A program made the translations under genes and the position numbers. The notes below the pieces were generated by a model. The model made no database searches and was not told the origin of the DNA. It saw only the letters and a list, made by a program, of their open reading frames with translations. Source: Actinobacteria bacterium IMCC19121 (lineage in GTDB: Bacteria; Actinomycetota; Actinomycetes; Nanopelagicales; Nanopelagicaceae). Taken from it: 64,000 bases of DNA. Below are positions 31,421 to 46,085 of this stretch, in pieces. The stretch is taken from assembly GCA_002284895.1 (NCBI GenBank), contig CP015605.1, forward strand, positions 868,001-932,000, in the 5' to 3' direction. Numbering within the stretch: the first letter of the stretch is position 1; every line of letters begins with the position of its first letter.

Positions 31421-32490
31421 AGCGTGCGGCCTTTCCATTGCACTTGCCCACGCATTAACCATGAGTAAATGATGAGGTACATAAGAAGAGCGGAAGAAAT
31501 GGGATGTAAAAGCGCATCCAGAGCATTTTTGCCAGTTTTAATTGAACTCATTACACGGGTAAGAGTAACTGCGGCATAGGCATACCAACCAATAGTTGAA
31601 CCTGTGATGCCGGCGATAAGTGGAGCAATACCTGTAAGAAAGAGGAATGTGATTGCAAGTGCAGAACCAAAAAAAGAACCGAAGGCTGCATGAAGAGATT
31701 TACCATAACCGGCTTGGATCTCCTTCCATGATGAATACATACGAGTGGACGCAATTTCTGCGCCATTTGCCACGCAACCATGTGAGCCTTGTTTAACAAG
31801 GGCCCTTGCTAATTCCACATCATCTAAAACTTTGTTGCGAACGCTCTCATAACCACCCACTTGAGCAAGAGCTGCTCGTCTGACAACAAAGAACTGACCG
31901 TTGGCCACAACCATTGAAGCAATAGAGCTCTTTTCAGCAATTCGCAACATAACTGTGGACATCCACGACCATTGCAGCAGTGGCTGAATCAACCTTTCAG
32001 ACCATGAAAATGAAAGCTGCTTTGGATAAGGGGAGAGAAAATCTAACTGTGTGTTCTTAAGCAATGTAACTGCACGGTTTATTGCATCAGGAACTAATCG
32101 CACATCAGCATCAACGGATACGATGATTTGACCGCTAGATCTTTCGAAGAGTTGTTGTAACGCCCACGTCTTACCAATCCACCCCTGTGGCAGCGTGGAT
32201 CCATTCAGTATGTGAAAGTTAGTTAGACCAGATGTGTGTTGGTGCAAGAGAGCAAGAGTGCCATCCTCAGAATTATCATCTAGAAGTAAAAACTCAACTT
32301 GAGCCAGGTTCGTTTGGGTTCGAAGTGAGGCAATAAGTTCTACGACATTTGTCGCCTCATTGCGCAGGGGAACGACTACTGAGATGGATTCATTAATTTG
32401 AGTGGTCTTCTTTGGGTTGCGAATAGTGAAGAAGTTGATCAAGGAGATGAGGAGAATAAAACTGGAAGGAATTGTTAAGAGGTAATCCAT
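31417..32490 (-). CDS. Membrane glycosyltransferase family 2, probable carotenoid glycosyltransferase
   Basis: 357 residues. One N-terminal helix, GT2 domain (SVVVPLRNEATNV, LLLDDNSEDGT, VSVDADVRLVP, and a later KVLDDVELARAL acting as the ED motif), then about three C-terminal helices. This layout matches CruC/CrtQ-type enzymes that glucosylate hydroxylated carotenoids. Linked to cruF downstream-to-upstream with 5 nt between, so a hydroxylation-glycosylation pair is likely. Confidence 0.78.
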   Translation of the reverse strand: MDYLLTIPSSFILLISLINFFTIRNPKKTTQINESISVVVPLRNEATNVVELIASLRTQTNLAQVEFLLLDDNSEDGTLALLHQHTSGLTNFHILNGSTLPQGWIGKTWALQQLFERSSGQIIVSVDADVRLVPDAINRAVTLLKNTQLDFLSPYPKQLSFSWSERLIQPLLQWSWMSTVMLRIAEKSSIASMVVANGQFFVVRRAALAQVGGYESVRNKVLDDVELARALVKQGSHGCVANGAEIASTRMYSSWKEIQAGYGKSLHAAFGSFFGSALAITFLFLTGIAPLIAGITGSTIGWYAYAAVTLTRVMSSIKTGKNALDALLHPISSALLMYLIIYSWLMRGQVQWKGRTL

Positions 32491-32495
32491 GGACT

Positions 32496-33299
32496 CTAAG
32501 GGCGTCCCAACCAGCGGTTAAAGAAATATGGGGCAAGGACGATGCCAAAGATGCCACCGGCAAAGAAGGCAACACCTGGACGGCTAAAGAAGAACAAATT
32601 GCCGACAATTCCTGAGAACAATGTCCATAAAAGGAATATGTCGGTGGTGCGGAATGTGGCGCCACCTTTTCGCTTTTCGCGCGGGGTAATAACATGCAGA
32701 ACGCCGATTAAGAACATTCCACTGAGTAACCAACCAAAAGTATTTGACAAAGGAATCTCAGGTTGGAAAGGAACGTGTGCGCCAGTGACAACCCACGTCC
32801 AATTACCTTGTGCCACCATCTGTGGATCTAAAAATAAGTCCCAAGCAGCAAGTGCAACTCCGCCGTAAAGAAATACCCAATTACCTGCAATACGCCGGGC
32901 TGCAGTTAAAACTGGGTGCGCCATCATGATCCAAGCAAATGGCACAACGAGTGGCACTTCAAAAATCTTTAAACCTAAATTGCCAGAGTATGAATAGTTA
33001 CCAAATGGCCACTGCGTCAAAACACCAACGTGTTCGATGATGAGGGCGAAGGAGAAGGTAAATAAGAAATATGTAATTGCATAACGAGCGCCATATGCAA
33101 GGAGTGCATGTAACAACATTGCACCAGCGCCCCAATAGACAACATTGATTGTGAGCAAACGCAAAACCTCACCATTAACTAATGGATAGAGGACTTGGAG
33201 CACAATTGCGATACCAAAAACCGAGTTCAAAATGCCATTGGCGCGAGGTGATAGTTGGCCATGGCGACGCCGTCTTGGTGTGTAATGACGGATCGACAT
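32496..33299 (-). CDS. cruF: Carotenoid 1,2-hydratase, CruF family
   Basis: 267-residue protein of the DUF422/CruF family with about seven helices. Motifs seen are FTFSFALIIEHVGVLTQWPFG, NYSYSGNLG and LAAWDLFLDPQMV (Asp pair), followed by NTFGWLLSG. These enzymes add water across the terminal psi-end double bond of gamma-carotene or bacterioruberin precursors. A basic HxTPRRRR stretch opens the protein. Confidence 0.85.
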   Translation of the reverse strand: MSIRHYTPRRRRHGQLSPRANGILNSVFGIAIVLQVLYPLVNGEVLRLLTINVVYWGAGAMLLHALLAYGARYAITYFLFTFSFALIIEHVGVLTQWPFGNYSYSGNLGLKIFEVPLVVPFAWIMMAHPVLTAARRIAGNWVFLYGGVALAAWDLFLDPQMVAQGNWTWVVTGAHVPFQPEIPLSNTFGWLLSGMFLIGVLHVITPREKRKGGATFRTTDIFLLWTLFSGIVGNLFFFSRPGVAFFAGGIFGIVLAPYFFNRWLGRP

Positions 33300-33325
33300 G
33301 GCTTAAGTCTGCCCTAAAAGCCTTA

Positions 33326-33982
33326 CTAACTATTAATCGAACCGCGAATATCCTTGACTGCAAAGCGTGCAAAGAGCTCTTCTGAATACCATTTATAGGT
33401 AGATGTGTCTGCAATCGCCTTTTGGTGGGCTGCACCCTTGTATGCAAAGTTCTTTATTGCATCCCCTGACTCCCACAAAGAGAAAGTGCCCTGCAAACCA
33501 ATAGGGGCTTCACCAATTCCTATGGCAGAGATCAAGCCAGGTGCTGATTTCAATGACATTGTCACAGGTGGCACAGAGCTCCAAAAGCGAAAGTTTTGAT
33601 GCCACTTAATGCGTGCCCGAGTAATTGCAGCAACTGGGCCAGTCCAGTCTTTTGCGCTTGCAACAAATGGTTCCTGCTTTGCCCACTGGCCGTGAGATGA
33701 AATAGGTTCAAGAATCGCACGAAATTCACTCACACTATTTTTGCGCCATTGCTTGACAACAAAAGATTGATCAAAGGCATCAATGTCGTGAACTTGTGCA
33801 ATTAAACCCCAACGAAGCGCGTTGGCATCGGCCGGTGTGAAAGTCTCGCCTTTGCCTGTGCCAAGTGATTTAAAGAAGCCAACGTTTTTGGATGAACGAA
33901 GAAAAAATCTGTCCATACCCATTGCAACTAATGCAAAGGGAATACGGCTAGGAGTTATTGTCCAGAAGTATGCAACAATCAT
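33326..33982 (-). CDS. crtA: Spheroidene monooxygenase (CrtA)-like protein
   Basis: 218 residues. The C-terminal block GDAIKNFAYKGAAHQKAIAD followed by TYKWYSEELFARFAV is typical of the CrtA family, which inserts keto groups at the psi end of acyclic carotenoids using heme. It ends 26 bp after cruF begins upstream, in the same direction. Activity here is inferred from cluster membership. Confidence 0.75.
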   Translation of the reverse strand: MIVAYFWTITPSRIPFALVAMGMDRFFLRSSKNVGFFKSLGTGKGETFTPADANALRWGLIAQVHDIDAFDQSFVVKQWRKNSVSEFRAILEPISSHGQWAKQEPFVASAKDWTGPVAAITRARIKWHQNFRFWSSVPPVTMSLKSAPGLISAIGIGEAPIGLQGTFSLWESGDAIKNFAYKGAAHQKAIADTSTYKWYSEELFARFAVKDIRGSINS

Positions 33983-34225
33983 TTAGAACCAGCGAATCAT
34001 TCCAATAATGCCTGCAGCTGCATAGAAGAACTGCAAGAAGAGAATTCCTTTGTGCTTTCCTAGGTATGCCCAGATGCCAATCAGGGCAGAGGATGTGAGA
34101 AGCAATGTGAAACCAATGAACTCAGCTCCAATATTTGCAGCAACTAGAAGTGAATAAACAATTGCAGTTGCAACGCCTAGCCACTCAAAGATTCTTGCCT
34201 TAGAGGCATCACTATTTCTGTTCAA
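33983..34225 (-). CDS. Small membrane protein, unknown
   Basis: 80 residues with three hydrophobic helices (VATAIVYSLLVAAN, FIGFTLLLTSSALIGIWAYL, FLQFFYAAAGIIGMIRWF) after a polar start. It resembles short PnuC-like or YgjV-like membrane proteins only in general form. It overlaps the VOC gene upstream by 14 bp and abuts crtA. No function proposed. Confidence 0.65.
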   Translation of the reverse strand: MNRNSDASKARIFEWLGVATAIVYSLLVAANIGAEFIGFTLLLTSSALIGIWAYLGKHKGILFLQFFYAAAGIIGMIRWF

Positions 34226-34595
34226 TTAAATCCCACTTATTTCCATATTTGTCTTTGAAAACCACCACTTGACCATAGGCCTCTTGGCGAGGAGTTTCAA
34301 TGAACTCAATACCTTTTGATTTATAGCCATCATAAGTTTCATTAAAGTTAGTTGTATACATAAAGAACCCCACGCGACCACCAGTTGAATTACCTATTGC
34401 TGCTATCTGCGCTTCATTGGCTGCCTTTGCCAGCAGTATTCGAGCACCTTGTGAGCTAGGTGCAACTACCACCCAACGCTTTTCAGGCGACAGGACTGTG
34501 TCTTCAATAAGAGTGAACCCAAGATCATTTACATAGTGAGTAATGGCAGAGTCATAATCATCAATAACTAGTGCAATCATGCCTAACGTGTTCAT
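34212..34595 (-). CDS. VOC (glyoxalase/bleomycin resistance) superfamily protein
   Basis: 127 residues with two beta-alpha-beta modules (MIALVIDDYDSAITHYVNDL; GFFMYTTNFNETYDGYKSKG) and the terminal VVFKDKYGNKWDLIE. Metal ligands are plausible but the substrate is unknown. It overlaps the preceding gene by 4 bp. Confidence 0.82.
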   Translation of the reverse strand: MNTLGMIALVIDDYDSAITHYVNDLGFTLIEDTVLSPEKRWVVVAPSSQGARILLAKAANEAQIAAIGNSTGGRVGFFMYTTNFNETYDGYKSKGIEFIETPRQEAYGQVVVFKDKYGNKWDLIEQK

Positions 34596-35017
34596 AACTT
34601 GTCACGCCCCGTGGGTTTTGAAACCTTACCCTCACTCGCGTTTTTCGATTGGGACTTCATGATTCCATAAAATGCAGCTGTAATTACGAATGCGGGGATA
34701 ACGTTCCAACGCTCATTTGCGCTTCGAGATGCCGCATTGGCAAGAATTCCTAACACACCGAGAATAACAATGGCTTTAACTATCCATTTTGGCTTTATTG
34801 CTAAGCCATATGAGAAGCGAGTGAAAATCACTATCTGACAGACAATTAATGCAAAATTAAGAATGTAAACAACTCTGAGGTAAGTTGGAAAGACCTCAAA
34901 TTGGCCACCTGCTGCGCGATCAAGAGCGTAAGAAGCACCCAGCATGACACCGCCAACTAGATATAGGTTCCAGGCAAAAGAGGCAAAAACTGCGGTTACA
35001 AAAGTTTTGTTCCTCAT
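34592..35017 (-). CDS. Membrane protein, unknown
   Basis: 141 residues, four hydrophobic helices, ending in a charged tail (KSQSKNASEGKVSKPTGRDKL region). ATG 35017 is used, with GGAG 9-12 nt upstream and 4 nt after the ybaK stop. It therefore lies downstream of the rebuilt ybaK in one operon. A longer upstream frame overlaps ybaK. Confidence 0.65.
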   Translation of the reverse strand: MRNKTFVTAVFASFAWNLYLVGGVMLGASYALDRAAGGQFEVFPTYLRVVYILNFALIVCQIVIFTRFSYGLAIKPKWIVKAIVILGVLGILANAASRSANERWNVIPAFVITAAFYGIMKSQSKNASEGKVSKPTGRDKL

Positions 35018-35021
35018 TTCA

Positions 35022-35555
35022 CTAGTCTCCAACAACCATCGGTGTAGCACCTGTTACGCGCGCTAGTTCTTCAAAAGAAGTTGGATAAACAGAGTGCGGA
35101 TGACCAGCTGCAGCCCAAGCAACGTCATAATCGTTGAGAGCTTGATCAATCAAAGTGATTTCTGGCTTGTTTACCCAACCCACAGGTGAGACGCCCCCTG
35201 CGGGTTCTGAAACCCAGCCAACAGGAGAAACTCCTCCTATCGCAAAGCCCGAAACTGAGCGCACATAGTCCGCATCGGCTCGGTGTAACTTCTCGACTCC
35301 TAATTGCTTTGCCACGAGTTCGGTATCTACTCGGTGGCGTCCACTTGTTATGACGAGAAGAGGTTTTCCATCAGGTAACTTAAACACGATGGAAGAAGCC
35401 ACTTGACCGACTTCAATTCCAAGAGCGGAAGCTGCTTCGGCTGCCGTTCTCGCGCTTTCTTTTAGGGCAACAATTTGCCCAGTTACGCCTTTGGACTTTA
35501 GGACTTCAGCAACACGCATAACTGCGGGATGGCCAAGGATGTTTGACTCTTCCAT
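35022..35555 (-). CDS. ybaK: YbaK/EbsC aminoacyl-tRNA deacylase, chimera rebuilt by the integrated element
   Basis: 177 residues. Such proteins hydrolyse mis-charged Cys- or Ala-tRNA(Pro). The family motif IVFKLPDGKPLLVITSG has the key Lys. Codons up to the GGCGT core at 35191-35195 come from the element; the rest is host. As a result GGVSPVGWV occurs twice, 13 residues apart, the two copies identical in protein but differing at most third codon positions, so they come from different ybaK lineages. ATG 35555 overlaps the integrase stop (TGATG). Confidence 0.88.
   Translation of the reverse strand: MEESNILGHPAVMRVAEVLKSKGVTGQIVALKESARTAAEAASALGIEVGQVASSIVFKLPDGKPLLVITSGRHRVDTELVAKQLGVEKLHRADADYVRSVSGFAIGGVSPVGWVSEPAGGVSPVGWVNKPEITLIDQALNDYDVAWAAAGHPHSVYPTSFEELARVTGATPMVVGD
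35191..35195. other. Left attachment core (attL)
   Basis: ACGCC on the plus strand (GGCGT on the minus, coding strand), joining element-borne and host ybaK codons. The same five bases occur at 43292-43296. The predicted crossover dinucleotide is GT (minus strand). Confidence 0.75.
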
Positions 35556-37252
35556 CACTTCTTCCCCTTTGCCTTCTTTACAGCCGCCTTCGCAGTTTTG
35601 CTTTCGAGTGCGTCCTTTGCCAGTTTTCGTTTAGCCGTCTCTTTTGCTCGAGTACCAGCTTTCGGAACCTTGTTCCTTGCGTAGTAGCTTACAACAGTTT
35701 TATTTTCTTGCCATTGCCATTCGATTACTACACGATCGGTGTCGTATCCCTTAAATCGCCAGTTATCGGCGGTAGGGAGTATGACTACCTTTCGGATTAG
35801 TGCCTTTGCGATGTCTCGCCGCTGAGGAACAGTGAGTTTCTCCCAAACATCGTTCATAGACTGTAAATCCTCAGCCGAGAGAATTTCGTTCATGCTTGGA
35901 CTAGAAGTTACGGGTTTAAGTTCCTTGATTTCCTTTTCGGTTTCAGCGATTCGACCAAGAAGTACGTTCCAGTTTGTTTGAAAATCTTCCTCCCCGCCTC
36001 GGTATCTGAAATCCCCATTAGTCTTGCGAACTTGGAGCGCTTGAAGCTCAGAGCGAAGAAACTCGTGCCTGGTAACTGGATTGTCGAATCCTGTTTGTTT
36101 CACGTTGTCTTTCATTCGTTTGGCCAATCCAAGAATCAGCTTTCTGCTCTCCTTTGCGGAGATCATCTGAAGAATCACTTGAGTTATGTAGCCCTCAAGT
36201 GCTGCTGATTTCGTTGATAGGCCTTCACAATCCGTGTGTAATTGGTACTTTCCTCGACATCGATAAGTCGCACCACCATGTTCCGTAGGGCTGGCGCCAA
36301 TCATCTTTCCACCACAATAAACGCAATAGACAATGCCAGATAAAAGCGCACCACCTCTAGAAGGATGATAGAAGTAGCGTTCCTTTATTTTGCTTTGTAG
36401 AAGGTTGTAAGTGTCCAGTTCAATGAGCGGCGGAAAAGGTCTAACTTCCTCGCCCTTTTCATTTCTGAAAATCTTTCCGTCATAAACGAGATACCCAGCA
36501 ATATAAGGATGGCCTAACAGTTTGCGAAGAACTGGGTCAGACCATGGATTACCTTTCACAGAACGAGACCCCAAACTATTCAAGTGATTACAGATTTTCG
36601 GAATCGAATCACCTTTGAGGAAGAGCTTCACCGCAATGCGCATGAACTTCGCTTGTTCCTTGTCGATTACGAGCGTTGAACCTTCACCTGGTTTGCCTTT
36701 CTTAATCGCATACCCATAAGGAGCAGGCCCACCACGCCACTTTCCAGCACGCATCATTGTTTGTTGGGCAGACATAACTCGGTCTTTTATGTTTCGAGCT
36801 TCCGCAGCTCCGATAGTTCCGAGTAGTTCTGCTACTGATAGTCCGACAGGTGTTGAAGTATCAACGCCATCAGTTATTCCAACTAAAGAGGTTCTGGATT
36901 TGGCGAGAAGGTCAAGCACATCCCCAAGTTCTGAAACTCTTCTTGTTAATCGGTCGAGTTTGTAAACAACGACATAGTCGTACTTATCGAGGTTTGCTAG
37001 GAGCGCTTGATAAGCAGGTCGATGTATTCCTTTACTTCCGCTGAACCCGAGATCCACGAAGAAATCACCACCGCCGATTTTGATTGCTTCGTCAGGGTCA
37101 AGAATTGCGTTTGAATCTTTAATTGCCCATCCGTAGTCCTTACATTTTCTAAGAATCGCATTTCGCTGAGTTTCCGGGCTATAGGTGTCTTCAGTCAGGA
37201 CAGAAAGACGGATGTATCCCGCCGCTGTTTTGCCTGTCCCTTTGACTGCCAC
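35555..37252 (-). CDS. int: Large serine integrase
   Basis: 565 residues. Resolvase domain with nucleophile Ser in YIRLSVLTED, then DLGFSGSKGIHRP, VVYKLDRLTRRV and a GTIGAAEARNIKDRV helix; recombinase domain with WRGGPAPYGY; zinc ribbon (CVYCGGKM, then YRCRG and DCEG); a coiled-coil; and a Lys/Ala-rich tail. It catalyses insertion and excision at att sites. GTG 37252 has TAAGCT 6 nt upstream. The stop overlaps the ybaK start, so integrase and the rebuilt ybaK share one message. Confidence 0.95.
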   Translation of the reverse strand: MAVKGTGKTAAGYIRLSVLTEDTYSPETQRNAILRKCKDYGWAIKDSNAILDPDEAIKIGGGDFFVDLGFSGSKGIHRPAYQALLANLDKYDYVVVYKLDRLTRRVSELGDVLDLLAKSRTSLVGITDGVDTSTPVGLSVAELLGTIGAAEARNIKDRVMSAQQTMMRAGKWRGGPAPYGYAIKKGKPGEGSTLVIDKEQAKFMRIAVKLFLKGDSIPKICNHLNSLGSRSVKGNPWSDPVLRKLLGHPYIAGYLVYDGKIFRNEKGEEVRPFPPLIELDTYNLLQSKIKERYFYHPSRGGALLSGIVYCVYCGGKMIGASPTEHGGATYRCRGKYQLHTDCEGLSTKSAALEGYITQVILQMISAKESRKLILGLAKRMKDNVKQTGFDNPVTRHEFLRSELQALQVRKTNGDFRYRGGEEDFQTNWNVLLGRIAETEKEIKELKPVTSSPSMNEILSAEDLQSMNDVWEKLTVPQRRDIAKALIRKVVILPTADNWRFKGYDTDRVVIEWQWQENKTVVSYYARNKVPKAGTRAKETAKRKLAKDALESKTAKAAVKKAKGKK

Positions 37253-37258
37253 CTGAAA

Positions 37259-37264
37259 AGCTTA
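37259..37264 (-). promoter_or_regulatory. -10 element of leaderless integrase (and rebuilt ybaK)
   Basis: TAAGCT on the minus strand, six bases (tttcag), then GTG. Same architecture as host genes, suggesting the element is adapted to this lineage. Confidence 0.55.
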
Positions 37265-37389
37265 GCCGCATAAGTCGGACTAGGACAGACATTTGCGAAG
37301 GTTTCACAAGCGGGGCGTAGTCAGTCCTTCGAGGTATCCAGCCAAAGAGTTCGTATGCGAAAACTGGCCATCGAAGCACCGTCACGGAC

Positions 37390-37527
37390 ATGACTACAAC
37401 ACGCGAAATCAACCAAGCCCGCATCACCGCTGCTGCCGCCGAGGCGGTACGCAAGGCAGGAACTCCTTCCGAGGTCGCCCTCACGAAGGTGGCTCGAGTT
37501 CTGGCGACCCTTTCCGAGGATTGCTGA
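37390..37527 (+). CDS. Possible 45-residue protein upstream of rep
   Basis: Open frame MTTTREINQARITAAAAEAV continuing to TLSEDC, Ala-rich and probably helical. It lies in the 285-bp gap between integrase and rep, where excision or copy-control factors are often coded. No ribosome site is evident and no family is recognised. Could be non-coding. Confidence 0.35.
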   Translation: MTTTREINQARITAAAAEAVRKAGTPSEVALTKVARVLATLSEDC

Positions 37528-37537
37528 CTTTTCGGGC

Positions 37538-38785
37538 ATGCCCCCGACTGTTCTAAGGATGACCACTCCTGCCACACGCCCTAAGTACGAGAAGTGCGTC
37601 CGCCCCTACTTTCTTGCTCGAGAAGAAACGACTCTTTCGACAGGAGAAGTAAATATCTCTACTTTTGAGAAGCGGTGTGGCACTCGCCGAAAGGATCTGT
37701 GCGAACCCTGCTCAATAGTTTGGAAGGACGATGCTTACTTCGCCCTCATGACTGGGGCTAAGGATTACCAAGGGAAAATTACCTTCATCACTTTGACTGC
37801 GCCAGGTTGGAGAAGGTACGGCAAAGCTCACAAAGTAACTCAAGGCGATTCCAATTTCAGCACTTGTCCTTGTAAGCACAGACACAAATCCGATGACCCT
37901 TTGGTTGGCCTTCCATTGGATAAGAACAACTTTCACCATCGAAAAGTTGTTGAGTTCAACCATCTTGCTCCGCGACTTACCGCCATCACGCTTCAGAAAA
38001 TTTGGCGATTAATGGCAACTCAAAATGCGACCTCTATAAAGAAAGTTAAGCGACCGACCGCTCGAGTTATGGAGTGGCAGGACAGAGGTTTGCTTCATGT
38101 CCACATCATTGTTTTGGGAGAAATACCCGAAGCGATAGTGAAAGCGGCAGTCTTGGGACGTGCCTCTCAAAGTAAGAGTCGGAGTGTTTCACCAACTTCA
38201 CACAAAGGCGTCCGATGGGGAACACAGCTCGATGTTAAGCACGTTGATGGAAAGAATCTAGATGAAACGAGGAAGTTAAGTGCCTATGTCACGAAAGTTA
38301 TTTCCTACGCAGTCAAGGATGTAACTCGGGAAAATACAGCGAACCATCCAGGTCATAACGCACATAGGCAAACTCTCCGCAGCTTCACAAACTCTGTTAT
38401 CTCTTGTTCTGCTACTCCACTCCAATGTAGGGGAGCAGATCTAGGAGATAACCCTTCACGCATTTTGATTGGAGTGAACTCAAAGGTTGGCCTTTGTCGA
38501 AAACACTACCGAGGTAAGCACCAACTTGGATTCACAGGAAATGTACTTTCACTCAATCGTTCTTGGGGTTCATCGTTGGGAGCGGCCAGAAAAGCCCGTC
38601 AGACTTGGGCGAAGTCGGAAGCGGCGCAGACCGCCGACAAGGCGGGCTGCCTAGATACTGAAAAGAAACTCGTCACACATCTGTTCCTTGGCCGCGACCC
38701 ATTGAAAGCAAGAAAGCTTCTTGCCATTCGCGAAGCAGCACGAATAGTAAGTAGAAGCGGCGTATTTACTCCGCTTCTAACCTAA
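37538..38785 (+). CDS. rep: HUH-type replication initiator (RepSA-like)
   Basis: About 415 residues. A Cys-rich N-terminal part (CGTRRKDLCEPC), motif ITFITLTAPGWR, the HUH motif LLHVHIIVLG, and a Tyr/Lys helix SAYVTKVISYAVKD match rolling-circle Reps of actinobacterial plasmids and integrative elements. It nicks the origin and joins DNA 5' ends to Tyr. ATG 37538 or 37559 could be the start; only the latter has AAGG nearby. Confidence 0.85.
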   Translation: MPPTVLRMTTPATRPKYEKCVRPYFLAREETTLSTGEVNISTFEKRCGTRRKDLCEPCSIVWKDDAYFALMTGAKDYQGKITFITLTAPGWRRYGKAHKVTQGDSNFSTCPCKHRHKSDDPLVGLPLDKNNFHHRKVVEFNHLAPRLTAITLQKIWRLMATQNATSIKKVKRPTARVMEWQDRGLLHVHIIVLGEIPEAIVKAAVLGRASQSKSRSVSPTSHKGVRWGTQLDVKHVDGKNLDETRKLSAYVTKVISYAVKDVTRENTANHPGHNAHRQTLRSFTNSVISCSATPLQCRGADLGDNPSRILIGVNSKVGLCRKHYRGKHQLGFTGNVLSLNRSWGSSLGAARKARQTWAKSEAAQTADKAGCLDTEKKLVTHLFLGRDPLKARKLLAIREAARIVSRSGVFTPLLT

Positions 38786-38796
38786 AGGAGCAAGAA

Positions 38797-39129
38797 ATGG
38801 AACTTCCAGTAGATGTAGACAAGTTAAGCATCATCGTAATCGGAGAAGCCCTGCCAGTTTATGTATATGGCACGGATGAAAAGCGTAAGAACGCACAAGG
38901 ACAAGAGATTTACAAACTACCCGTCCTAATTCAAAACACAGGGGAAAGACAAGACCCAACGACAACAATCACAGTAGCGGGCTCAGCACCGCAGTTCCCA
39001 AAGGGATCGCGTGTGTCGGCAGTTGGCCTAACAGTTATGAGTTGGTCAATGCGCGGAAAAGACGGAGTGGTGCGAAATGGAATCACTCTCCGCGCAAAGA
39101 GCCTCATTCCGTTTGCGAGCAAGGCTTAG
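38797..39129 (+). CDS. Small element protein, unknown (possible ssDNA-binding)
   Basis: 110 residues, beta-rich, with strong AAAGGAG ribosome site 6 nt before the ATG, and 3 nt before the FtsK-like gene. Placed between Rep and the FtsK-like ATPase as in other actinobacterial elements. An OB-like fold is possible but not proven by eye. Confidence 0.7.
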   Translation: MELPVDVDKLSIIVIGEALPVYVYGTDEKRKNAQGQEIYKLPVLIQNTGERQDPTTTITVAGSAPQFPKGSRVSAVGLTVMSWSMRGKDGVVRNGITLRAKSLIPFASKA

Positions 39130-39132
39130 CAG

Positions 39133-40263
39133 ATGTGGAAGCGCCTTCGACTTCAGCAGGTGTTCACTAACCTAAGGTTGGAAGGAATCTACATTCCTTT
39201 CTTTCAAAGAGTTACGTTCACTCCCGCAGGTGGCTACTCCGTCAAAATCAAATTGCGAACGGGTATGACTCACACTCGCATCATGAAGAAGGCAGAAGCA
39301 ATCGCCATTGGTATGAAGGCAGCAGAAATTACTCTAGACAGAATCAAGGGGGACAAGTTTCTCCTCTCGGTTCGTACTGAGAACGAAAAGGTATTGCCCA
39401 CACACCCAAGCATGGGAAGAAAACTTGGTAGGCCAGAAGCTGAACCACTTGTTCGCGTTCCAGAAGTTTTATCTTCTGTTCCGTTCGGTGTTAACGCGGA
39501 TGGCTACCAAGTTCTTCTTCCGCTCTTCACTAAGTCCGGTGGCAGTACAACGCTCATCGGTGGCAACCCTGGACAAGGAAAGTCATCAGCAGTGAAGGTA
39601 ATTCTCGCGGGATGTATTCAGAGCAACTCGTGCGTCATTTGGTTTGACCCTAAAAGTGGAGCCGATGCCAATCCGTTTAAGAGCAGAGTTGAAGTTGTAT
39701 CTAATCCGAGAAATCCAGATGAGTTTCTGGAATACCTCACAAGAATCCAAGAGGTTATCTACAGACGCAACCATCTCATCTCATTGGGTTATTCGATTGA
39801 CCTTCTTCCCAAGATTGTTCTTTTCATTGACGAGTGGGCATTACTTACCGCACTTGGCACAAAGCAACAGCAGCAATTTATCCAAACTGAAATTCGCCAT
39901 CTAGCGGCAACAGGTAGATCCGCCAACGTTTCTCTAGTGTTGGCGACTCAACGTCCCACAAGTGTGAACATCGATGTCGCGACAAGAGAACTAAGTAACA
40001 ATCGAGTTGCTTTCCTGGTTGGTGATACTCACGCATCAGAGGCAATCCTCGGACAAACTGGTGCAGAGTCAAAGACCAATCCACTAAGTCCAGGACAGGC
40101 ACTTGTCTGGCTAGATGGACAACTCCAAAGAACTTCCCTCTATTCAGTTCCTGAAGATTTGTCTCGACAATGTGAAACGGCAGCGGGCTACAAGATAACG
40201 CTTGACCGAGTAGAAGAACTCGAAGAAGTGTTTCGCCGCGAAAATGGAATAGTGGAATTTTAA
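39133..40263 (+). CDS. FtsK/SpoIIIE-like DNA translocase (TraB/TraSA type)
   Basis: 376 residues. Walker A GGNPGQGKSSAVK near residue 140, Walker B KIVLFIDEWALL near residue 235, and LATQRPT as sensor. No membrane helix is evident at the N-terminus. In streptomycetes such proteins pump double-stranded plasmid DNA between cells, so it is the likely transfer motor. Starts 3 nt after the preceding gene. Confidence 0.88.
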   Translation: MWKRLRLQQVFTNLRLEGIYIPFFQRVTFTPAGGYSVKIKLRTGMTHTRIMKKAEAIAIGMKAAEITLDRIKGDKFLLSVRTENEKVLPTHPSMGRKLGRPEAEPLVRVPEVLSSVPFGVNADGYQVLLPLFTKSGGSTTLIGGNPGQGKSSAVKVILAGCIQSNSCVIWFDPKSGADANPFKSRVEVVSNPRNPDEFLEYLTRIQEVIYRRNHLISLGYSIDLLPKIVLFIDEWALLTALGTKQQQQFIQTEIRHLAATGRSANVSLVLATQRPTSVNIDVATRELSNNRVAFLVGDTHASEAILGQTGAESKTNPLSPGQALVWLDGQLQRTSLYSVPEDLSRQCETAAGYKITLDRVEELEEVFRRENGIVEF

Positions 40264-40342
40264 GACACAGTTCTACTTAGCTTAGTACCCTTTAGGTGAT
40301 TACTTTGGCCTTCCCCCTTAGTGCTTCAGTCCTGGGGGACTC

Positions 40343-41065
40343 GTGGAACTTAACCAAATTTTGGACAGATTCGTGGAAGGTATTTCCGCGGTCGATGCCA
40401 AGACCGAGCACACATCAGCCAATAGGCGTACAGGCGAGATGTACCTTCCTGGTGTAAAGACAATGAACGAACCGAAGTTTGTTGAAGAGTTTCTGGACTG
40501 GTGGCGACTCGAACACCCTTCGGACTTCTCACCAAGGGGAGCAAGCGACAGAGAAGTTAAATACCCAGGTATTCCCAGAGCAAAGTGCGACCTCATTTTC
40601 AGTTCCGAAGGATCTCCACTTGAAACTCCAGAGTGGTCTATTGAGGTCAAGCACGTTGCGTTGGTAGGAAATAACGGAAAGAACAATGACTTCGGCGTTG
40701 CGAAAATCCTGTCTCCCTACCTTAAAGACCGCTCTCTAATTCACGACATCGAACGTCTGCGTGACCATGGAATTGGAAAACGAAAGGCGGTTGTCGGGTA
40801 CTCCTTTGAGTACAGTTACCAAAGTTGTTACGAGGCCGCGTTGAAGCACCCGTCACATCTCGATGTAGTAGAGAACATCAAAGAAGTTTGTAGGATGAAC
40901 GACCCTAGTAACGGAAACTATCCGCTATTGCCGATGATTGAGTTCGCCAATGAAATTTTCAACCATAAGGGACTAGTTAAAGAACTTATAGTGAAAGACT
41001 TCAAGAACGCATGGCGACACCCAGCGGGTGGTAACGGAAAGTTCTTTGCTTGGGAACTCCAATAA
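40343..41065 (+). CDS. Probable type II restriction endonuclease (PD-(D/E)xK)
   Basis: 240 residues. The likely active site is RAKCDLIFS followed by EWSIEVKHVAL (Asp then Glu-x-Lys), a PD-(D/E)xK layout. Starts at GTG 40343 with GGGGGA upstream; 79 bp after the FtsK-like gene. A C5-methyltransferase gene in the same element supports an R-M pair, though the two are not adjacent and are transcribed towards each other. The recognition site is unknown. Confidence 0.6.
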   Translation: MELNQILDRFVEGISAVDAKTEHTSANRRTGEMYLPGVKTMNEPKFVEEFLDWWRLEHPSDFSPRGASDREVKYPGIPRAKCDLIFSSEGSPLETPEWSIEVKHVALVGNNGKNNDFGVAKILSPYLKDRSLIHDIERLRDHGIGKRKAVVGYSFEYSYQSCYEAALKHPSHLDVVENIKEVCRMNDPSNGNYPLLPMIEFANEIFNHKGLVKELIVKDFKNAWRHPAGGNGKFFAWELQ

Positions 41066-41085
41066 ATCGCAATTAGATTAAGAGA

Positions 41086-41664
41086 TTACTTAGATTTCTC
41101 AATTAACCAACGGTTAGGAAGTTCTGTTGCGAAATATGAGCCAACAGATCTCCATTCTTCACAATTCACCTTATCCGCCTGACTATCCTTAAGCATCGTT
41201 GTGTAGAAAATTGAAACGATAAACAAAAGCCCCATCATCTCTTCGTCATTCTTGTCCATACCAAGGTTTTGGCATTCCATAGAAAGAGCTGAAAAGATAT
41301 CCATCTGGTCACTATTTGTAATGGACATAGATTTGTTCCATTTGGAAAGAACTCTATTTAATGCCATGCCTTGTTGAAGATAGAGCATGTGGTCGGTTTC
41401 TTCTAACTTAAAGAGATTTATATCTTCTTTGCTCACTTCAACTTGAAATGGTGAGTAGGCAAGGGCTTCAAAAATTTCCTCGGAGATTAATCCATCTTTG
41501 AGAGCCTTAGCAACAATCGCGCTGAAAAGTTTTGAATATTTAGGAACATAAGGACCTGCTGGAGATTGCCTACCAACACTCAAAGCCTGAGCAATCGTCA
41601 TAAAGACAGAAGAACGGAGAGCCCAAGCAGGTAGTGGTTCTTGCTTATTTCCAAATAGTCCCAT
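41086..41664 (-). CDS. Unknown element protein
   Basis: 192 residues, mostly helical, no signal peptide (MGLFGNKQEPLPAW start). No family is recognised by eye. It lies between the endonuclease and methyltransferase genes. It could be an R-M control or accessory factor, but nothing in the sequence proves this. Confidence 0.7.
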   Translation of the reverse strand: MGLFGNKQEPLPAWALRSSVFMTIAQALSVGRQSPAGPYVPKYSKLFSAIVAKALKDGLISEEIFEALAYSPFQVEVSKEDINLFKLEETDHMLYLQQGMALNRVLSKWNKSMSITNSDQMDIFSALSMECQNLGMDKNDEEMMGLLFIVSIFYTTMLKDSQADKVNCEEWRSVGSYFATELPNRWLIEKSK

Positions 41665-41736
41665 AACTCATAAACCTTTCAATTGAAACATTAACTTAAC
41701 TGTAAAGCAGATTGCCTATAAATCAAGGCCTTGTTA

Positions 41737-43134
41737 CTACTGAACTAAGCGAAGCGGTGGAACTTCATTTTCTTTTGCGTACTTTACGTTTTCTGCTACT
41801 CGGTGATAGTCGCCGTGGTTTCCAAGAACGAAATCAGGGTTGGCAGGTGCTGAAAGTATCGCGTCAGTGAGTTTGCTCTTCCCCAGAAGATCTAAGTCGC
41901 GCAACACTTGCGCCTTTAAGACGTTGTACACAGCACCTACATTCACGCCGTTTCCAAGTTGCTTGTAAGTAAGCGAATCCCTTTGGTCGACAAAGTCATA
42001 CCAGTCTGGAAGTCCTTGTAATCGTGCGCCTTCACGAATAGTAATTCGGCGCTTTTGCTTTGCGATAATCGATGTTTGAGTGATTGCGACCAACGCTGGT
42101 ACGTAAGTAGGGCGTTTGGCACGAATTCCAGAAGGGCGGAAGTGTAAAACTGTTTCCCAAAGATTCTTTGCGTTCTGCGCTTGCCACTCAAGTTTTCTAC
42201 GACTTGGCGGGAAATCTTCAAGGTTATTCCACTTCTTCAACCAAACATCGAGCACCTTCTTGTGCTTCGTATAGAACTCAGCATTCTTGTAAAGGAAGTT
42301 TTCTTTCCAAGCAGGCGTGCCATAAGGAATGCTCAACTTAGATGAGAGAATCCAATCGTCAGCCCAAATAGGGAATCCTGGTAACTTTTCACCTTTAAGT
42401 TCCACACGCATAAGCTCGACAAATTCATTCCAAGCTTCAAGCCATTTGATTTCAGTTCCATTGAGTGCGACATCCTTCTTCGAAGCAGCGGTCGTCAATT
42501 TCTCAAGCGGCAAGTGCTTGTCGAGTTTCCAATCCTGCGGATCCCAATTCATCATGACTGCCGAAAGGTCTGGGATGTCTGGATTCGGGTTCTTATCTTT
42601 CTTCCCCGCAGGTATGAGAGTTGCCGCGATAAACACACGTTCGCGAACTTGAGGACGACCGCCGAACTCTGGACGAATTAAATGCGGAGAAACAACCATT
42701 GGTTCTTTGCTAACGCGATAACCAAGTTGTCTAAGAGTTTGGATGATTACTTCCCACTCATGGATGTGACGTGGGCCTGCGATGTTGCGAACGTTTTCGA
42801 GTAAAACGAGAGAAGGCTTATGTACCTCAATGATGCGAGCGATGTTCCAAAATAGAGTTCCTCGAGTTTCTTCCATGCCCATTTGCTTTCCAGATTTACT
42901 AAAGGGCTGGCAAGGGAATCCACCTACGAGAACGTCATGAGGTGGGACATCCATAACATCCTCATTAGCTGCGAGGGTAATGTCACCGTCGGGCTTCAAC
43001 CCCCAATTTCGCTGGTAGATACGAGCAGCATCTTTGTCGATTTCAGATGCGTACACGCACTCGCCACCCATCGCGCCAAGAGCGGCATGGAAGCCACCGA
43101 TTCCAGCGAAGAGGTCTACGAACTTAAATCCCAT
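41737..43134 (-). CDS. dcm: DNA (cytosine-5) methyltransferase
   Basis: 465 residues. SAM motif FVDLFAGIGGFHAAL, motif IV GGFPCQPFSKSG with the catalytic Cys, motif VI LLENVRN, motif VIII PQVRERVF and C-terminal YKQLGNGVNV. A large target-recognition insert lies in the middle. It starts 9 nt after the truncated ybaK frame, so in the integrated state it may be read from the host adh-ybaK promoter. Confidence 0.93.
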   Translation of the reverse strand: MGFKFVDLFAGIGGFHAALGAMGGECVYASEIDKDAARIYQRNWGLKPDGDITLAANEDVMDVPPHDVLVGGFPCQPFSKSGKQMGMEETRGTLFWNIARIIEVHKPSLVLLENVRNIAGPRHIHEWEVIIQTLRQLGYRVSKEPMVVSPHLIRPEFGGRPQVRERVFIAATLIPAGKKDKNPNPDIPDLSAVMMNWDPQDWKLDKHLPLEKLTTAASKKDVALNGTEIKWLEAWNEFVELMRVELKGEKLPGFPIWADDWILSSKLSIPYGTPAWKENFLYKNAEFYTKHKKVLDVWLKKWNNLEDFPPSRRKLEWQAQNAKNLWETVLHFRPSGIRAKRPTYVPALVAITQTSIIAKQKRRITIREGARLQGLPDWYDFVDQRDSLTYKQLGNGVNVGAVYNVLKAQVLRDLDLLGKSKLTDAILSAPANPDFVLGNHGDYHRVAENVKYAKENEVPPLRLVQ

Positions 43135-43143
43135 GGCCGCACT

Positions 43144-43611
43144 CTAATTCCCGCTACCGACAAAGGCGGTAGATCTGACGCTGCGACACGGTAACGAAGC
43201 AGCAAAACCTCTAAGGGATAGAAGGAGTTTCTCCAGGGGAAGTGAGGCTAGTCCAGCGTAAATCTGACGAGATACATAAGCCGTAAGGGGCACGCCACCG
43301 ATGGAAAAGCCTGAGGCGTTTTTCACAAAGTCAGCATCTGCGCGGTGAAGCTTTTCAACACCTAAGTTCTTAGCCACTAGTTCTGTGTCCACGCGATGGC
43401 GCCCGCTAGTAATAACTAACAGTGGATTGCCACTTGGAAGTTTAAAAACAATAGAGGAGGCAACTTGTCCTACTTCAATGCCTAGGGCATTGGCAGCATC
43501 GAGTGCTGTGCGAGCAGAGTCAGAGAGAATTGTTACTTCACCAGAACAACCCAGCTCTTTGAGCAGGGCAGTTACGCGGATAACTGAAGGGTTATTGAGA
43601 ACTTCTTCCAC
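43144..43611 (-). pseudogene. ybaK: Displaced host ybaK 5' half with element-coded tail
   Basis: Host codons 1-107 (MEEVLNNPSVIRVTALLKEL to GFSIGGV) run to the GGCGT core; after it, 48 residues from the element follow and end. The conserved SPVG loop and C-terminal half are lost, so editing activity is unlikely. GTG 43611 is 3 nt after the alcohol dehydrogenase stop. It keeps the native promoter and now leads into dcm. Confidence 0.85.
43292..43296. other. Right attachment core (attR)
   Basis: ACGCC on the plus strand, identical to 35191-35195. Reconstructed attP (minus strand) is GGGGC-GT-GCCCC, a perfect dyad; attB is GGTGGC-GT-CTCACC, with outer four bases dyadic. Confidence 0.75.
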
Positions 43612-43614
43612 TAT

Positions 43615-44793
43615 CTATGCAACACGGCTTTCAAGCTTTAGCGCTGACATAAAGGCATCTACTACTTCTTGCTTGCTCCATGGCTTTGGAGCTTGTGTAA
43701 TAAAGAAGTCTTTAAGTGCGATTTCAGCTAGTTCATCAATGTCGCCTTCTACAAAGCCAAGGGATGAAAGCACAGGGAATTGCAGCTCTGCCAGGATTTT
43801 TCTCACAGCGTTCACGCAGCGAGATCCATCCTTAGTGCCATCTTGTGGCACACCCATCGCATCTGCAACGCGCTCCATCTTTTGCGGAACAATCTTTGCT
43901 TCGCGGGTCAGTGTTTCAACTAGAACTAAACCAATTGTTAGACCGTGTGGAACATGCTTGAGGCCACCGATTGCCTGACCTAACGAGTGTTCTGCTGTGC
44001 AGTCAGAGATATTCATTGTGAGACCAGCCATCATGCTGCCGGATGCCATTCCAGCACGTGCAACTTTGTCATTGCCATCTTTAAAGGCTGCAACTAAGGC
44101 AGGAGTCATCATGCGCACTGCTTCATAACCAATGGCATCTCCAATAGGAGTTGAGCACTTAGCGATGATTCCTGCGATTGCTTGAGCAAGAGCATCTATA
44201 CCTGTGTTGGCTGTCATTGAAGGAGGCATGGAATAAGTAAGCACTGGGTCAACTAGTGCAACTTGCGCGCGAAGGTTTCCATTTGCAATACCTGCTTTGC
44301 GACCAGCCTCTGGATCAGAGATAACAGAACCACCAGATACTTCAGAGCCTGTGCCAGCAGATGTTGGAAGAGCAACAAGTGGAAGTGTTGGTGCTGGATA
44401 GACAGGTGGCTTAGATTGGAATTCTCGGAAAGTGCAGTTGAGTTGGGCGCAAAGACGCGCAGCCTTGGCTGTGTCGATAACTGAACCGCCACCGAGTGCA
44501 ACAACAACATCTGAACCTGCTGCCTTAAGTGCTGCGATTGAATCATCGACCATTTGAATTGTTGGCTCACCTGCAGGCTTTTCAAAGACTGTAACGGTGA
44601 TTCCAGCAGCTGCCTTCATCTGATCAATGAGCTTTGCTGCTGCTGGATTAAACTTCTCAATATCTTTATCAACCATCAAAAAGACTTTGCTGGCACCAAG
44701 CTCTGCAACAACTGCTGGCAAAGTCTCTGCCACACCTTCTCCAAAGCGAACCTTGACTGGCAAGTGATTATTAAAGGCAGTGATGTTGTCCAC
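43615..44793 (-). CDS. Iron-containing alcohol dehydrogenase
   Basis: 392-residue group III dehydrogenase. NAD site LGGGSVIDTAKA, GTGSEVSGGSV, and the metal ligands in CTAEHSLGQAIGG and LKHVPHG. Possible substrates include short alcohols, glycerol or maleylacetate. GTG 44793 has AAGGAG 6 nt upstream; a frame extension further up overlaps SulP. It shares an operon with the host ybaK. Confidence 0.88.
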   Translation of the reverse strand: MDNITAFNNHLPVKVRFGEGVAETLPAVVAELGASKVFLMVDKDIEKFNPAAAKLIDQMKAAAGITVTVFEKPAGEPTIQMVDDSIAALKAAGSDVVVALGGGSVIDTAKAARLCAQLNCTFREFQSKPPVYPAPTLPLVALPTSAGTGSEVSGGSVISDPEAGRKAGIANGNLRAQVALVDPVLTYSMPPSMTANTGIDALAQAIAGIIAKCSTPIGDAIGYEAVRMMTPALVAAFKDGNDKVARAGMASGSMMAGLTMNISDCTAEHSLGQAIGGLKHVPHGLTIGLVLVETLTREAKIVPQKMERVADAMGVPQDGTKDGSRCVNAVRKILAELQFPVLSSLGFVEGDIDELAEIALKDFFITQAPKPWSKQEVVDAFMSALKLESRVA

Positions 44794-44828
44794 GGAGTGC
44801 TCCTTGGTGAGTTGGTATGGGTTTGATT

Positions 44829-46085
44829 CTATATCGCAGAAGGCTTTTGAGAGTAGTGGGCCAAGATCATATGCAGCGCAATGCCTATGGCCATGCCCCA
44901 AATCAAATCAATTGCAACGGTGCTAACTGCAGTCACAATTAATGTGGCAGATTCTGCCTTAGTCGTGCGCAGTGATTCCATGATTGATGCCGGGTTAAGG
45001 ATTCGATAGCTAGTTCCCAGCAATAAGCCGGCAATAACTGCAGTTGGAATTTGGCTGACAAGTGGGGCAGCAATGAGTGCAATAAAGAGAAGCACGAGTG
45101 CATGAAAAACAGAGGCCATCCGTGATGTGGCATGAGATCTCACATTCACACTTGTTCTAGCAATTGCACCGGTTGCTGGCATTCCACCAAAAAGTGAGGC
45201 GGCAAGTGTTGCAAGTCCCTGTCCAAAGAGTTCACGGTTAGGTTCAAAATGTTCCTTGCTATGGGCAAGACCATCGGCAACTCGGGCAGAGAGTAAAGAT
45301 TCAACTGCTGCAAGGAGTGCAATCCACAGAGCCGGGATAAGCAGCGCCGTTAAATTATCAAAGATAGGTTTTTGATAGGTGCCAAGTGCGCGGGGGATAT
45401 TTCCAATTGTTGCGACATCGATAGAAAAAGCTTTCACCAGCAGGGTAACTAAAAGCAGTGCGATAAAGCTGGCTGGAATATGTAGTTTCCATTTCAAACG
45501 ATGAACTATGTGGGGCCAGGAGAACTTGATTATCAATGTAATAAGCACGATAAGAAGAGACGTGTAGTTAAGGCCGGCATCGATCGCATCTTTCAAGGTG
45601 TTCCAAGCAACGATGTAGCTTTTCTCTCCTTCTCCTTTTGCAATGCCAAGTGCAAGTGGAATCTGCTGCAAAGAGATAATGAATGCAATTCCAACTGTGA
45701 AACCTTCAACGACAGTCCATGGCACACGATTTATCACTGCGCCTAATTTAAATACAGCCATTGCAATAACCATCACGCCAGCCATGAGGCCAAGGGCTGG
45801 GATTGCACCCACTCCGTAGCTATGGATAACTGGAATCAAAATAACTGTCATGGCACCTGTTGGACCACTGACTTGATATTTCGAGCCACCAAAGATTGCA
45901 GCTAAAAAGCCAGCAATTATCGCTGTGGTTAAGCCAGCTGCAGCTGACATCCCTGATGTGATTCCAAAACCAATAGCAAGGGGCAGAGCCACAATGGCAA
46001 CAGTTAAGCCAGCGATTAAATCAGTGAGTAGATCTTTGCGGTTGTTTGAGAACTCACTTCTTTTTGGCCAGAAGGAGAAGAACAT
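44829..46085 (-). CDS. SulP-family anion transporter without STAS domain
   Basis: 418 residues. SulP membrane domain with GLTVAIVALPLAIGFG, SKYQVSGPTGAMT, and VAAVESLLSARVADG-like segments. It ends right after the last helix, with no cytoplasmic STAS domain. Such proteins carry sulfate, bicarbonate or organic anions; the substrate is unknown. ATG 46085 is chosen because TACAAT lies 5 nt upstream; a GTG at 46133 would read through the promoter. Confidence 0.88.
   Translation of the reverse strand: MFFSFWPKRSEFSNNRKDLLTDLIAGLTVAIVALPLAIGFGITSGMSAAAGLTTAIIAGFLAAIFGGSKYQVSGPTGAMTVILIPVIHSYGVGAIPALGLMAGVMVIAMAVFKLGAVINRVPWTVVEGFTVGIAFIISLQQIPLALGIAKGEGEKSYIVAWNTLKDAIDAGLNYTSLLIVLITLIIKFSWPHIVHRLKWKLHIPASFIALLLVTLLVKAFSIDVATIGNIPRALGTYQKPIFDNLTALLIPALWIALLAAVESLLSARVADGLAHSKEHFEPNRELFGQGLATLAASLFGGMPATGAIARTSVNVRSHATSRMASVFHALVLLFIALIAAPLVSQIPTAVIAGLLLGTSYRILNPASIMESLRTTKAESATLIVTAVSTVAIDLIWGMAIGIALHMILAHYSQKPSAI

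What the first reader, a model, noticed from the sequence alone, without database searches (positions are those of the whole stretch)
37538..40263. Minimal Rep-small protein-FtsK core with serine instead of tyrosine integrase
HUH Rep, a small beta-rich protein and a TraB/FtsK-like motor form an AICE-like core in about 2.7 kb, with no relaxase, pilus or Spd genes. Most described AICEs use tyrosine integrases and tRNA sites. It may be one of the smallest conjugative elements, or a hitch-hiker.
Basis: partly seen in the sequence, partly recalled or inferred. Interest (0 to 1): 0.6.

Follow-up and report, generated by a model that had tools for sequence, protein, structure and literature searches.

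The report
Very small serine-integrase AICE in ybaK
A compact 8-kb mobile element, of the kind that carries its own replication starter and a DNA-pumping motor for mating, sits inside a tRNA-editing gene of a small actinobacterium and repairs the gene as it inserts; it belongs to a known kind (AICE), but is small and in an unusual host.

Summary
Window 37538-40263 encodes a RepSA-type HUH initiator, a Pra/SCO3933-like regulator and a TraB/FtsK-type ATPase. They are the core of an insertion of about 8.1 kb (35191-43296) in ybaK. The crossover is the 5-bp core GGCGT; the same site is empty in a same-genus genome. A large serine integrase lies at one end; other genes are a C5 methyltransferase, a possible nuclease and a helical protein. 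The element's own ybaK 5' part keeps ybaK full-length. A MAG of another genus carries the same seven genes in order, also in ybaK. The Tra groups with pSG5 and pFP11 TraB, not with chromosomal FtsK (AU test moderate). Int+Rep+Tra is the published AICE definition; 19 of 144 listed AICEs have serine integrases, and an S. coelicolor remnant has RepSA, Pra, Tra and a serine integrase. So: a new member of a known kind, smaller than the AICE sizes I could read (10.9-36.3 kb), without detected clt repeats or Kor gene, and rare in its order (2 of 296 genomes). More surprising in passing: ybaK is a recombination hotspot in the genus. Mobility is inferred, not shown.

The parts
35191..35195 (-). attL core GGCGT (coding strand) where host ybaK 3' part meets the element; element arm GGTTTCAGAACCCGCAGG lies at 35196-35214
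   Evidence: Junction read against empty sites of the genus; arm pattern at G000:C1:903191-903214 = window 35191-35214
35022..35558 (-). Restored ybaK (178 aa): 35196-35558 is the element's own 5' part with a 13-codon duplication, 35022-35195 is the host 3' end
   Evidence: Pfam tRNA_edit 80.7 bits; empty-site copies mostly have 163-aa frames; same structure in L003
35555..37252 (-). Large serine integrase, 565 aa
   Evidence: Pfam Resolvase 90.3, Recombinase 44.0, Zn_ribbon_recom 34.6 bits; PHROG 95 integrase 310.8 bits
37390..37527 (+). Small conserved ORF, 45 aa, function unknown (candidate directionality factor or regulator, a guess)
   Evidence: Conserved in frame in L003 at 3522, pN 0.28 against pS 0.64
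37538..38785 (+). RepSA-type rolling-circle (HUH) replication initiator
   Evidence: PF20199 139.6 bits, E 2e-40; HUH and YxxK motifs
38797..39129 (+). Pra/SCO3933-like regulator, 110 aa
   Evidence: NF051478 49.0 bits (cut-off 80), L003 copy 50.2 bits; SCO3933 is a Pra homologue according to PMC8584621
39133..40263 (+). Tra: TraB/FtsK-type DNA translocase, 376 aa, no transmembrane segment predicted
   Evidence: PF01580 29.4 bits; tree with pSG5/pFP11 TraB and AICE-type Tra; hydropathy
40343..41065 (+). 240-aa protein, possible PD-(D/E)xK-like nuclease (restriction partner of the methyltransferase), inferred
   Evidence: No family hit; D83...E101-V-K103 by pattern only; 94.6% identical in L003
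41086..41664 (-). 192-aa helical protein, unknown
   Evidence: No Pfam hit over a cut-off; low-confidence model all helix; 93.1% nucleotide identity to L003, dS 0.32
41737..43134 (-). C5-cytosine DNA methyltransferase
   Evidence: PF00145 248 bits; TIGR00675 dcm 203 bits, over cut-off
43292..43296 (-). attR core GGCGT; the host ybaK 5' half begins at 43611 and is cut here
   Evidence: Window 43292-44854 collinear with the empty-site genome G067 (94.6%)

Best explanation
This is a compact AICE (actinomycete integrative and conjugative element). Shown: an 8.1-kb insertion at a 5-bp core in ybaK, with the canonical Int+Rep+Tra set plus a Pra-like regulator; ybaK is kept full-length by an element-borne 5' part; an orthologous element sits in ybaK in another genus. 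Inferred: the serine integrase recombines attP with the ybaK core, and an unidentified directionality factor allows excision. On the excised circle Pra favours expression of the replication genes, RepSA nicks and starts rolling-circle replication, and the hexameric Tra pumps double-stranded DNA into a neighbouring cell, where the integrase inserts it again. The methyltransferase and the possible nuclease would act as a restriction-modification cargo that helps the element to persist.
For: Family hits for Int, Rep, Pra and Tra. Empty site and att core. L003 has the same seven genes, in order, in ybaK. Purifying selection: pN/pS Rep 0.21, Pra 0.10, Tra C-part 0.17, Int 0.27. Tra groups with pSG5/pFP11 TraB and two AICE-type Tra proteins, support 97/93; AU p 0.034 against a clade with chromosomal FtsK; the host has a separate FtsK. 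Pra directly before Tra also in 4 of 19 RepSA-selected loci that I fetched (L040, L041, L042, L045). Published definition and serine-integrase precedents. Six of seven element genes (all but Int; 76.0-93.1% nt) are more alike between the two genera than the few host stretches compared (63-73%), which fits transfer after the hosts split.
Against: No clustered clt-like 8-mers (0 observed, shuffle mean 0.13). No Kor, Xis, Spd or NUDIX/Pif homologue recognised. The NCBIfam equivalog cut-offs are missed (RepSA 74 of 700, SCO3933 49 of 80, TraB 30.6 of 800); FtsK_SpoIIIE is only just over its Pfam cut-off. AU p is 0.075 when phage Bobby FtsK is put in the rejected clade. The L003 Tra is frameshifted (100 + 283 aa). 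No circular form or transfer was observed. The integrase (72.7% nt) is no more alike between the genera than host FtsK (73.1%).
Confidence: 0.78

Rival explanations
1. Hitch-hiker (IME-like): the element excises and replicates by itself but is moved by another element's transfer machinery, its own Tra being too short or lacking a clt.
For: No clt repeats; Tra has 233 residues after Walker A against 339-345 in pSG5/pFP11 TraB, so the C-terminal DNA-binding part of TraB (recalled) may be absent; Tra frameshifted in L003.
Against: The tail is as long as in AICE-type Tra proteins (228-265 in 8 of the 11 fetched ones with a Walker A match). Tra is under purifying selection. In the host genome only chromosomal FtsK and this Tra match PF01580, so no resident FtsK-type helper was seen.
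Confidence: 0.2
2. Phage satellite or phage-derived island: RepSA-like Rep and FtsK-like ATPase serve replication and packaging by a helper phage.
For: PHROG hits for the ATPase to FtsK/SpoIIIE-like and terminase-like phage families (118.3 and 34.3 bits); 70 phage records hold a weak relative.
Against: No capsid, portal or terminase gene besides; no relative of Tra, Rep, the 240-aa protein, the methyltransferase or Int in 2.9 million viral contigs (that search finds close relatives only); Rep and Pra families are AICE families.
Confidence: 0.05
3. Decaying relic, no longer mobile, kept for its restriction-modification cargo.
For: Rare: 2 of 296 genomes of the order. Cargo proteins are the best conserved (240-aa 94.6%, 192-aa 94.3%, MTase 92.0% aa). 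L003 Tra frameshifted.
Against: All window ORFs intact; Rep, Pra, Tra and Int under purifying selection between two genera. The L003 contig ends right at the att core, which could reflect mixed integrated and excised states, though an assembly break explains it as well.
Confidence: 0.17

Closest known systems
pSAM2-like AICE remnant SCO3937 of Streptomyces coelicolor (SCO3932-SCO3937)
   Same: RepSA, Pra (SCO3933) and TraSA homologues with a serine integrase (PMC8584621 passages)
   Different: Has a KorSA-like GntR repressor (SCO3932); a remnant in Streptomyces; here no Kor, a methyltransferase cargo, order Rep-Pra-Tra, site ybaK
pSAM2 (Streptomyces ambofaciens), type AICE
   Same: RepSA rolling-circle initiator, Pra, FtsK-type TraSA
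   Different: 10.9 kb, tyrosine integrase and tRNA site (PMC3218068 section 6), with kor, xis and immunity genes; here 8.1 kb, serine integrase, protein-coding site
Serine-integrase AICEs of Mycobacterium and Segniliparus (Mmar2129, Mav3790, Srot1958)
   Same: Serine integrase, protein-coding target, Int+Rep+Tra (PMC3218068 section 6)
   Different: Other hosts and sites; I did not have their sequences to compare
TraB of pSG5 and pFP11
   Same: Nearest named Tra relatives in the tree; dsDNA pumping in Streptomyces mating (family property, PMC3218068 section 8)
   Different: 738 and 762 aa against 376 aa; 24.8 and 26.7% identity

Membership tests
[quoted passage not shown]
   Serine integrase at 35555-37252, about 360 bp from the attL core
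AICE | Replication initiator of RepSA, RepAM or Prim-Pol type | tested here: met
   PF20199 RepSA 139.6 bits against cut-off 34; the NCBIfam RepSA equivalog cut-off is not reached
AICE | FtsK/SpoIIIE-domain Tra | tested here: met
   PF01580 29.4 bits against 24; tree with TraB
AICE | Integrated in the chromosome between att sites; empty site exists | tested here: met
   Empty site in G067 and core GGCGT
AICE | No relaxase and no type IV secretion genes | tested here: met
   No such gene among seven ORFs; two ORFs match no family
AICE | clt locus bound by Tra | tested here: inconclusive
   No clustered 8- or 9-mers; a clt without clear repeats would be missed
AICE | Excises, replicates and transfers as double-stranded DNA | not testable with these tools
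   Needs cells or reads
Pra / SCO3933 regulators | Match to the curated family model | tested here: inconclusive
   49.0 and 50.2 bits, E 5e-13 and 2e-13, below the equivalog cut-off 80
Chromosomal FtsK | Groups with chromosomal FtsK in a tree | tested here: not met
   Outside the FtsK clade; AU p 0.034
Type II restriction-modification | Methyltransferase plus cognate endonuclease | tested here: inconclusive
   Methyltransferase clear; nuclease only by motif pattern, model not interpretable

The most novel reading that the evidence does not exclude
ybaK is the anchor of a serine-integrase gene-exchange platform in these streamlined actinobacteria: the AICE and a second, metal-resistance island with a related integrase supply the recombinase, and single-gene units (0.4-1.3 kb) flanked by duplicated ybaK 3' ends and the same attachment arm are moved in trans, like integron cassettes but with a large serine integrase and with a housekeeping gene that is repaired at each step.
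Probability: 0.12. Interest if true: 0.75.

Novelty: new member of a known kind. Interest (0 to 1): 0.4.

Why it matters
It gives a site, an att core and a gene set for testing TraB-type conjugation outside the mycelial actinomycetes. The ybaK hotspot suggests that site-specific integration, not only homologous recombination, shapes the flexible genome of these bacteria.

Tried and rejected
Chromosomal FtsK origin of the ATPase: rejected on the tree, moderately. Phage origin: no relatives of five element proteins in viral contigs. clt-like repeats: none by tandem-repeat search or clustered k-mers. Special fold of two intergenic regions (oriT- or dso-like): z 0.14 and -0.66, nothing. RNA families and tRNAs: none in the window, so no tRNA site. 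Structures of the 240- and 192-aa proteins: mean pLDDT 33 and 45 with two sequences each, not interpretable, so no fold search was run. Solved-structure search of the 240-aa protein: nothing. Pra in plasmids: nothing. Annotated neighbours of distant plasmid relatives of the 240-aa protein and of the methyltransferase: no shared pair. The inverted repeat 35224-35241/43217-43234 was considered as a core in inverted orientation and dropped when the empty sites showed the true core. Papers on AICEs or conjugative elements in Nanopelagicales/Planktophila: the searches listed none on this subject by title and start of abstract (I opened none of those). ybaK as a named integration site: none of the 15 papers listed holds the word ybaK.

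Rows dropped: L051 and L055 (no Walker A match to my pattern) are in neither tree; L048, L052, L053, L056 and L090 were left out of the second tree as long branches. In the breakpoint test 27 of the 29 loci L061-L089 were used: L062 was left out because its ybaK is itself an element junction, one more did not pass the pattern and length test.

Full report
What is there. The window lies in a one-contig 1.506-Mb genome (G000, completeness 99.95). At 37538-40263 three same-strand genes follow each other with gaps of 11 and 3 bases: a RepSA-type initiator (Pfam 139.6 bits, HUH motif), a 110-aa protein of the SCO3933/Pra kind (49 bits, below the curated cut-off of 80) and a 376-aa FtsK/SpoIIIE-type ATPase with intact Walker motifs. 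PMC8584621 (passages read) states that SCO3933 is homologous to Pra, SCO3934 to TraSA and SCO3936 to RepSA of pSAM2, and that SCO3937 is a serine integrase. PMC3364876 (passages) describes Pra as the pSAM2 replication activator. So the 'small beta-rich protein' is most likely a Pra.

Boundaries. ybaK occurs twice: a nearly complete copy at 35022-35558 and a 5' half at 43297-43611. In same-genus genome G067 (L100) window 30001-35426 and 43292-44854 align to one intact ybaK locus at 91.1% and 94.6%, so the site is empty there. Comparing attL, attR and empty sites gives the shared core GGCGT at 35191-35195 and 43292-43296, an element of 8101 bp counting one core. The element carries its own ybaK 5' part (35196-35558), so that ybaK stays full-length (178 aa) with a 13-codon duplication (GGVSPVGWVSEPA|GGVSPVGW). 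A short core, a large serine integrase beside it and gene restoration are as expected for site-specific integration by that enzyme.

A second copy. One relative of Tra was found in the genome contigs: L003, a 9403-bp contig of MAG PowLak16_MAG7, which is also a contig of G096, same family but another genus. It has ybaK, Int, Rep, Pra, Tra, the 240-aa and 192-aa proteins and the methyltransferase in the same order and orientation, and its ybaK shows the same duplication at the core. Protein identities between window and L003: Int 69.1, Rep 78.6, Pra 90.0, 240-aa 94.6, 192-aa 94.3, MTase 92.0%; nucleotide 72.7-93.1%, Tra 76.0%. pN/pS: Int 0.27, Rep 0.21, Pra 0.10, Tra C-part 0.17, 45-aa ORF 0.43, 240-aa 0.06, MTase 0.07; synonymous changes are at or near saturation for most genes, but dS is only 0.32 for the 192-aa gene, which points to a recent exchange of that gene alone. 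Tra in L003 is split into 100- and 283-aa frames; whether this is real or an assembly error I cannot tell. Host DNA: FtsK 73.1% nt, and only four pieces (63-71%) of a 7.8-kb flank of the window match G096. The element without Int is thus somewhat more alike than the hosts, on few genes.

Distribution. RepSA: 2 of 201 genomes of the family and 2 of 296 of the order (the same two), 151 of 394 of the class. The window's integrase has relatives in 5 of 151 family genomes: own, G096 (69%), G103 (61%) and two at 31-32%. Among 19 RepSA loci of the class that I chose and fetched (a 20th stretch was a filler), single-sequence searches found a Rep frame in 18, a Tra in 13 and a Pra in 5; in 4 of these 5 Pra directly precedes Tra, as here. 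In those 4 Rep stands downstream of Tra, so the order here is permuted.

What the ATPase is. The top-ranked plasmid hits are Streptomyces FtsK/SpoIIIE proteins, pFP11 and pSG5 among them (24.8-26.9% identity); by number of records Enterococcus plasmids lead (136 of 199). In a tree of 26 motor domains the window and L003 Tra fall with pSG5 and pFP11 TraB and AICE-type Tra L058/L059 (97/93), apart from nine chromosomal FtsK proteins including the host's own; holding window and chromosomal FtsK together gives AU p 0.034, and 0.075 if phage Bobby FtsK is added. In the first tree of 31 rows, with long branches, the window Tra is likewise outside the FtsK side (95/87), with weak inner forks. No transmembrane segment by hydropathy, as in pSG5 TraB. 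Length after Walker A is 233 residues, like 8 of 11 AICE-type Tra proteins (228-265) and shorter than plasmid TraB (339-345).

Comparison with the known kind. PMC3218068 (sections 5, 6 and 8 and passages read) defines putative AICEs by Int, Rep and Tra in one region and reports 19 of 144 with serine integrases, some in protein-coding genes; it found AICEs only in its (broad) Actinomycetales, and fewer in small genomes. The window element meets all three criteria. Reported sizes that I could read: 10.9-17.3 kb for seven AICEs (PMC3364876 figure legend) and 11.9-36.3 kb, defective ones included, in a Streptomyces population (PMC9513070 section 11). At 8.1 kb this one is smaller, but the size tables of PMC3218068 were not read, so 'smallest' is not claimed. 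Missing against pSAM2: Kor, Xis, Pif/NUDIX, as far as family searches of seven ORFs tell.

Cargo. A C5 methyltransferase is clear. Its best PADLOC model is called DruM (614.5 bits), but no other Druantia protein was hit. The 240-aa protein has D83 and E101-V-K103, which would suit a PD-(D/E)xK nuclease; this rests on a pattern match alone. A restriction-modification pair is plausible, not shown.

The hotspot. In 61 genomes of the genus (own included) searched with the ybaK protein, 49 had a match and 7 (G000, G103, G172, G213, G256, G279, G282) also a partial copy (my count). Between the full copy and the partial 3' copy lie single genes: a 131-aa protein without Pfam match (G279, also G030 of another genus), a flavodoxin-like protein (G256), an Na+/H+ antiporter (G172), an Na/Ca exchanger (G103), a glyoxalase-like gene (named by eye) between two 3' copies (G213), and a lipoprotein-like gene (by eye, no Pfam match) in L003. 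Most partial copies start right after an arm like the window's GGTTTCAGAACCCGCAGG-GGGCGT; a strict pattern of it occurs in 4 of 151 family genomes and its reversed control in none. G103 also carries a long island at ybaK, 11-12 kb of it assembled on one side, with a related integrase (split between two contig ends), a P4-type primase, a coupling-protein-like ATPase, an N6/N4 methyltransferase and a metal-type P-type ATPase. Across 27 ybaK genes of the genus the rank correlation of pairwise identities on the two sides of a sliding breakpoint is 0.31-0.67 where the core is outside both 75-base windows and falls to 0.11 at the core: ybaK genes look chimeric at the attachment core. The conserved codons beside the core may lower the correlation somewhat; no significance test was made. 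G030 and G279, of different genera, share one 1.0-kb block (ybaK, the 131-aa gene, arm, 3' copy) at 87.7%, with no other match outside it in the 16-kb stretches. I read these as scars and remnants of repeated integration; a cassette system working in trans is possible but untested.

Verdict. A real, compact, serine-integrase AICE of the pSAM2 type in ybaK, very probably functional in integration and replication; self-transfer is likely but unproven. It is a new member of a known kind, with an unusual host and size; the hotspot around it is the more surprising lead.

Noticed in passing
ybaK loci L061-L089, window 35022-35558: ybaK genes of the genus look chimeric: identity correlation across a sliding breakpoint drops to 0.11 at the attachment core (0.31-0.67 elsewhere), so the 3' end seems to have been swapped repeatedly.
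   Followed up: partly
L094 9134-10265, L112, L095 3-1303, L096 8198-10138, L091 9312-11129, L003 1-1713, L092 104-946: Single genes of 0.4-1.3 kb sit between a full ybaK (or another 3' copy) and a duplicated ybaK 3' end, mostly beginning at the same attachment arm, without an integrase of their own; one such unit is 88% identical between two genera.
   Followed up: partly
L090 3869-16533 and L091 10596-11660 (G103): A different, larger island in the same ybaK site: related serine integrase (61%, split over two contigs), P4-type primase, coupling-protein-like ATPase, N6/N4 methyltransferase, P-type ATPase and a CDF-like transporter (the last named by eye).
   Followed up: partly
window 41086-41664 against L003 7193-7771: The 192-aa gene is 93% identical in DNA while its neighbours are about 80%: a recent exchange of this gene alone between two elements.
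   Followed up: no
window 37390-37527: Unlisted 45-aa ORF conserved between integrase and rep in both elements; candidate recombination directionality factor or regulator.
   Followed up: no
L003 9390-9403 (contig end): The L003 contig ends exactly in the attR core, as expected if reads from integrated and excised or empty states were mixed, or from an ordinary assembly break.
   Followed up: no
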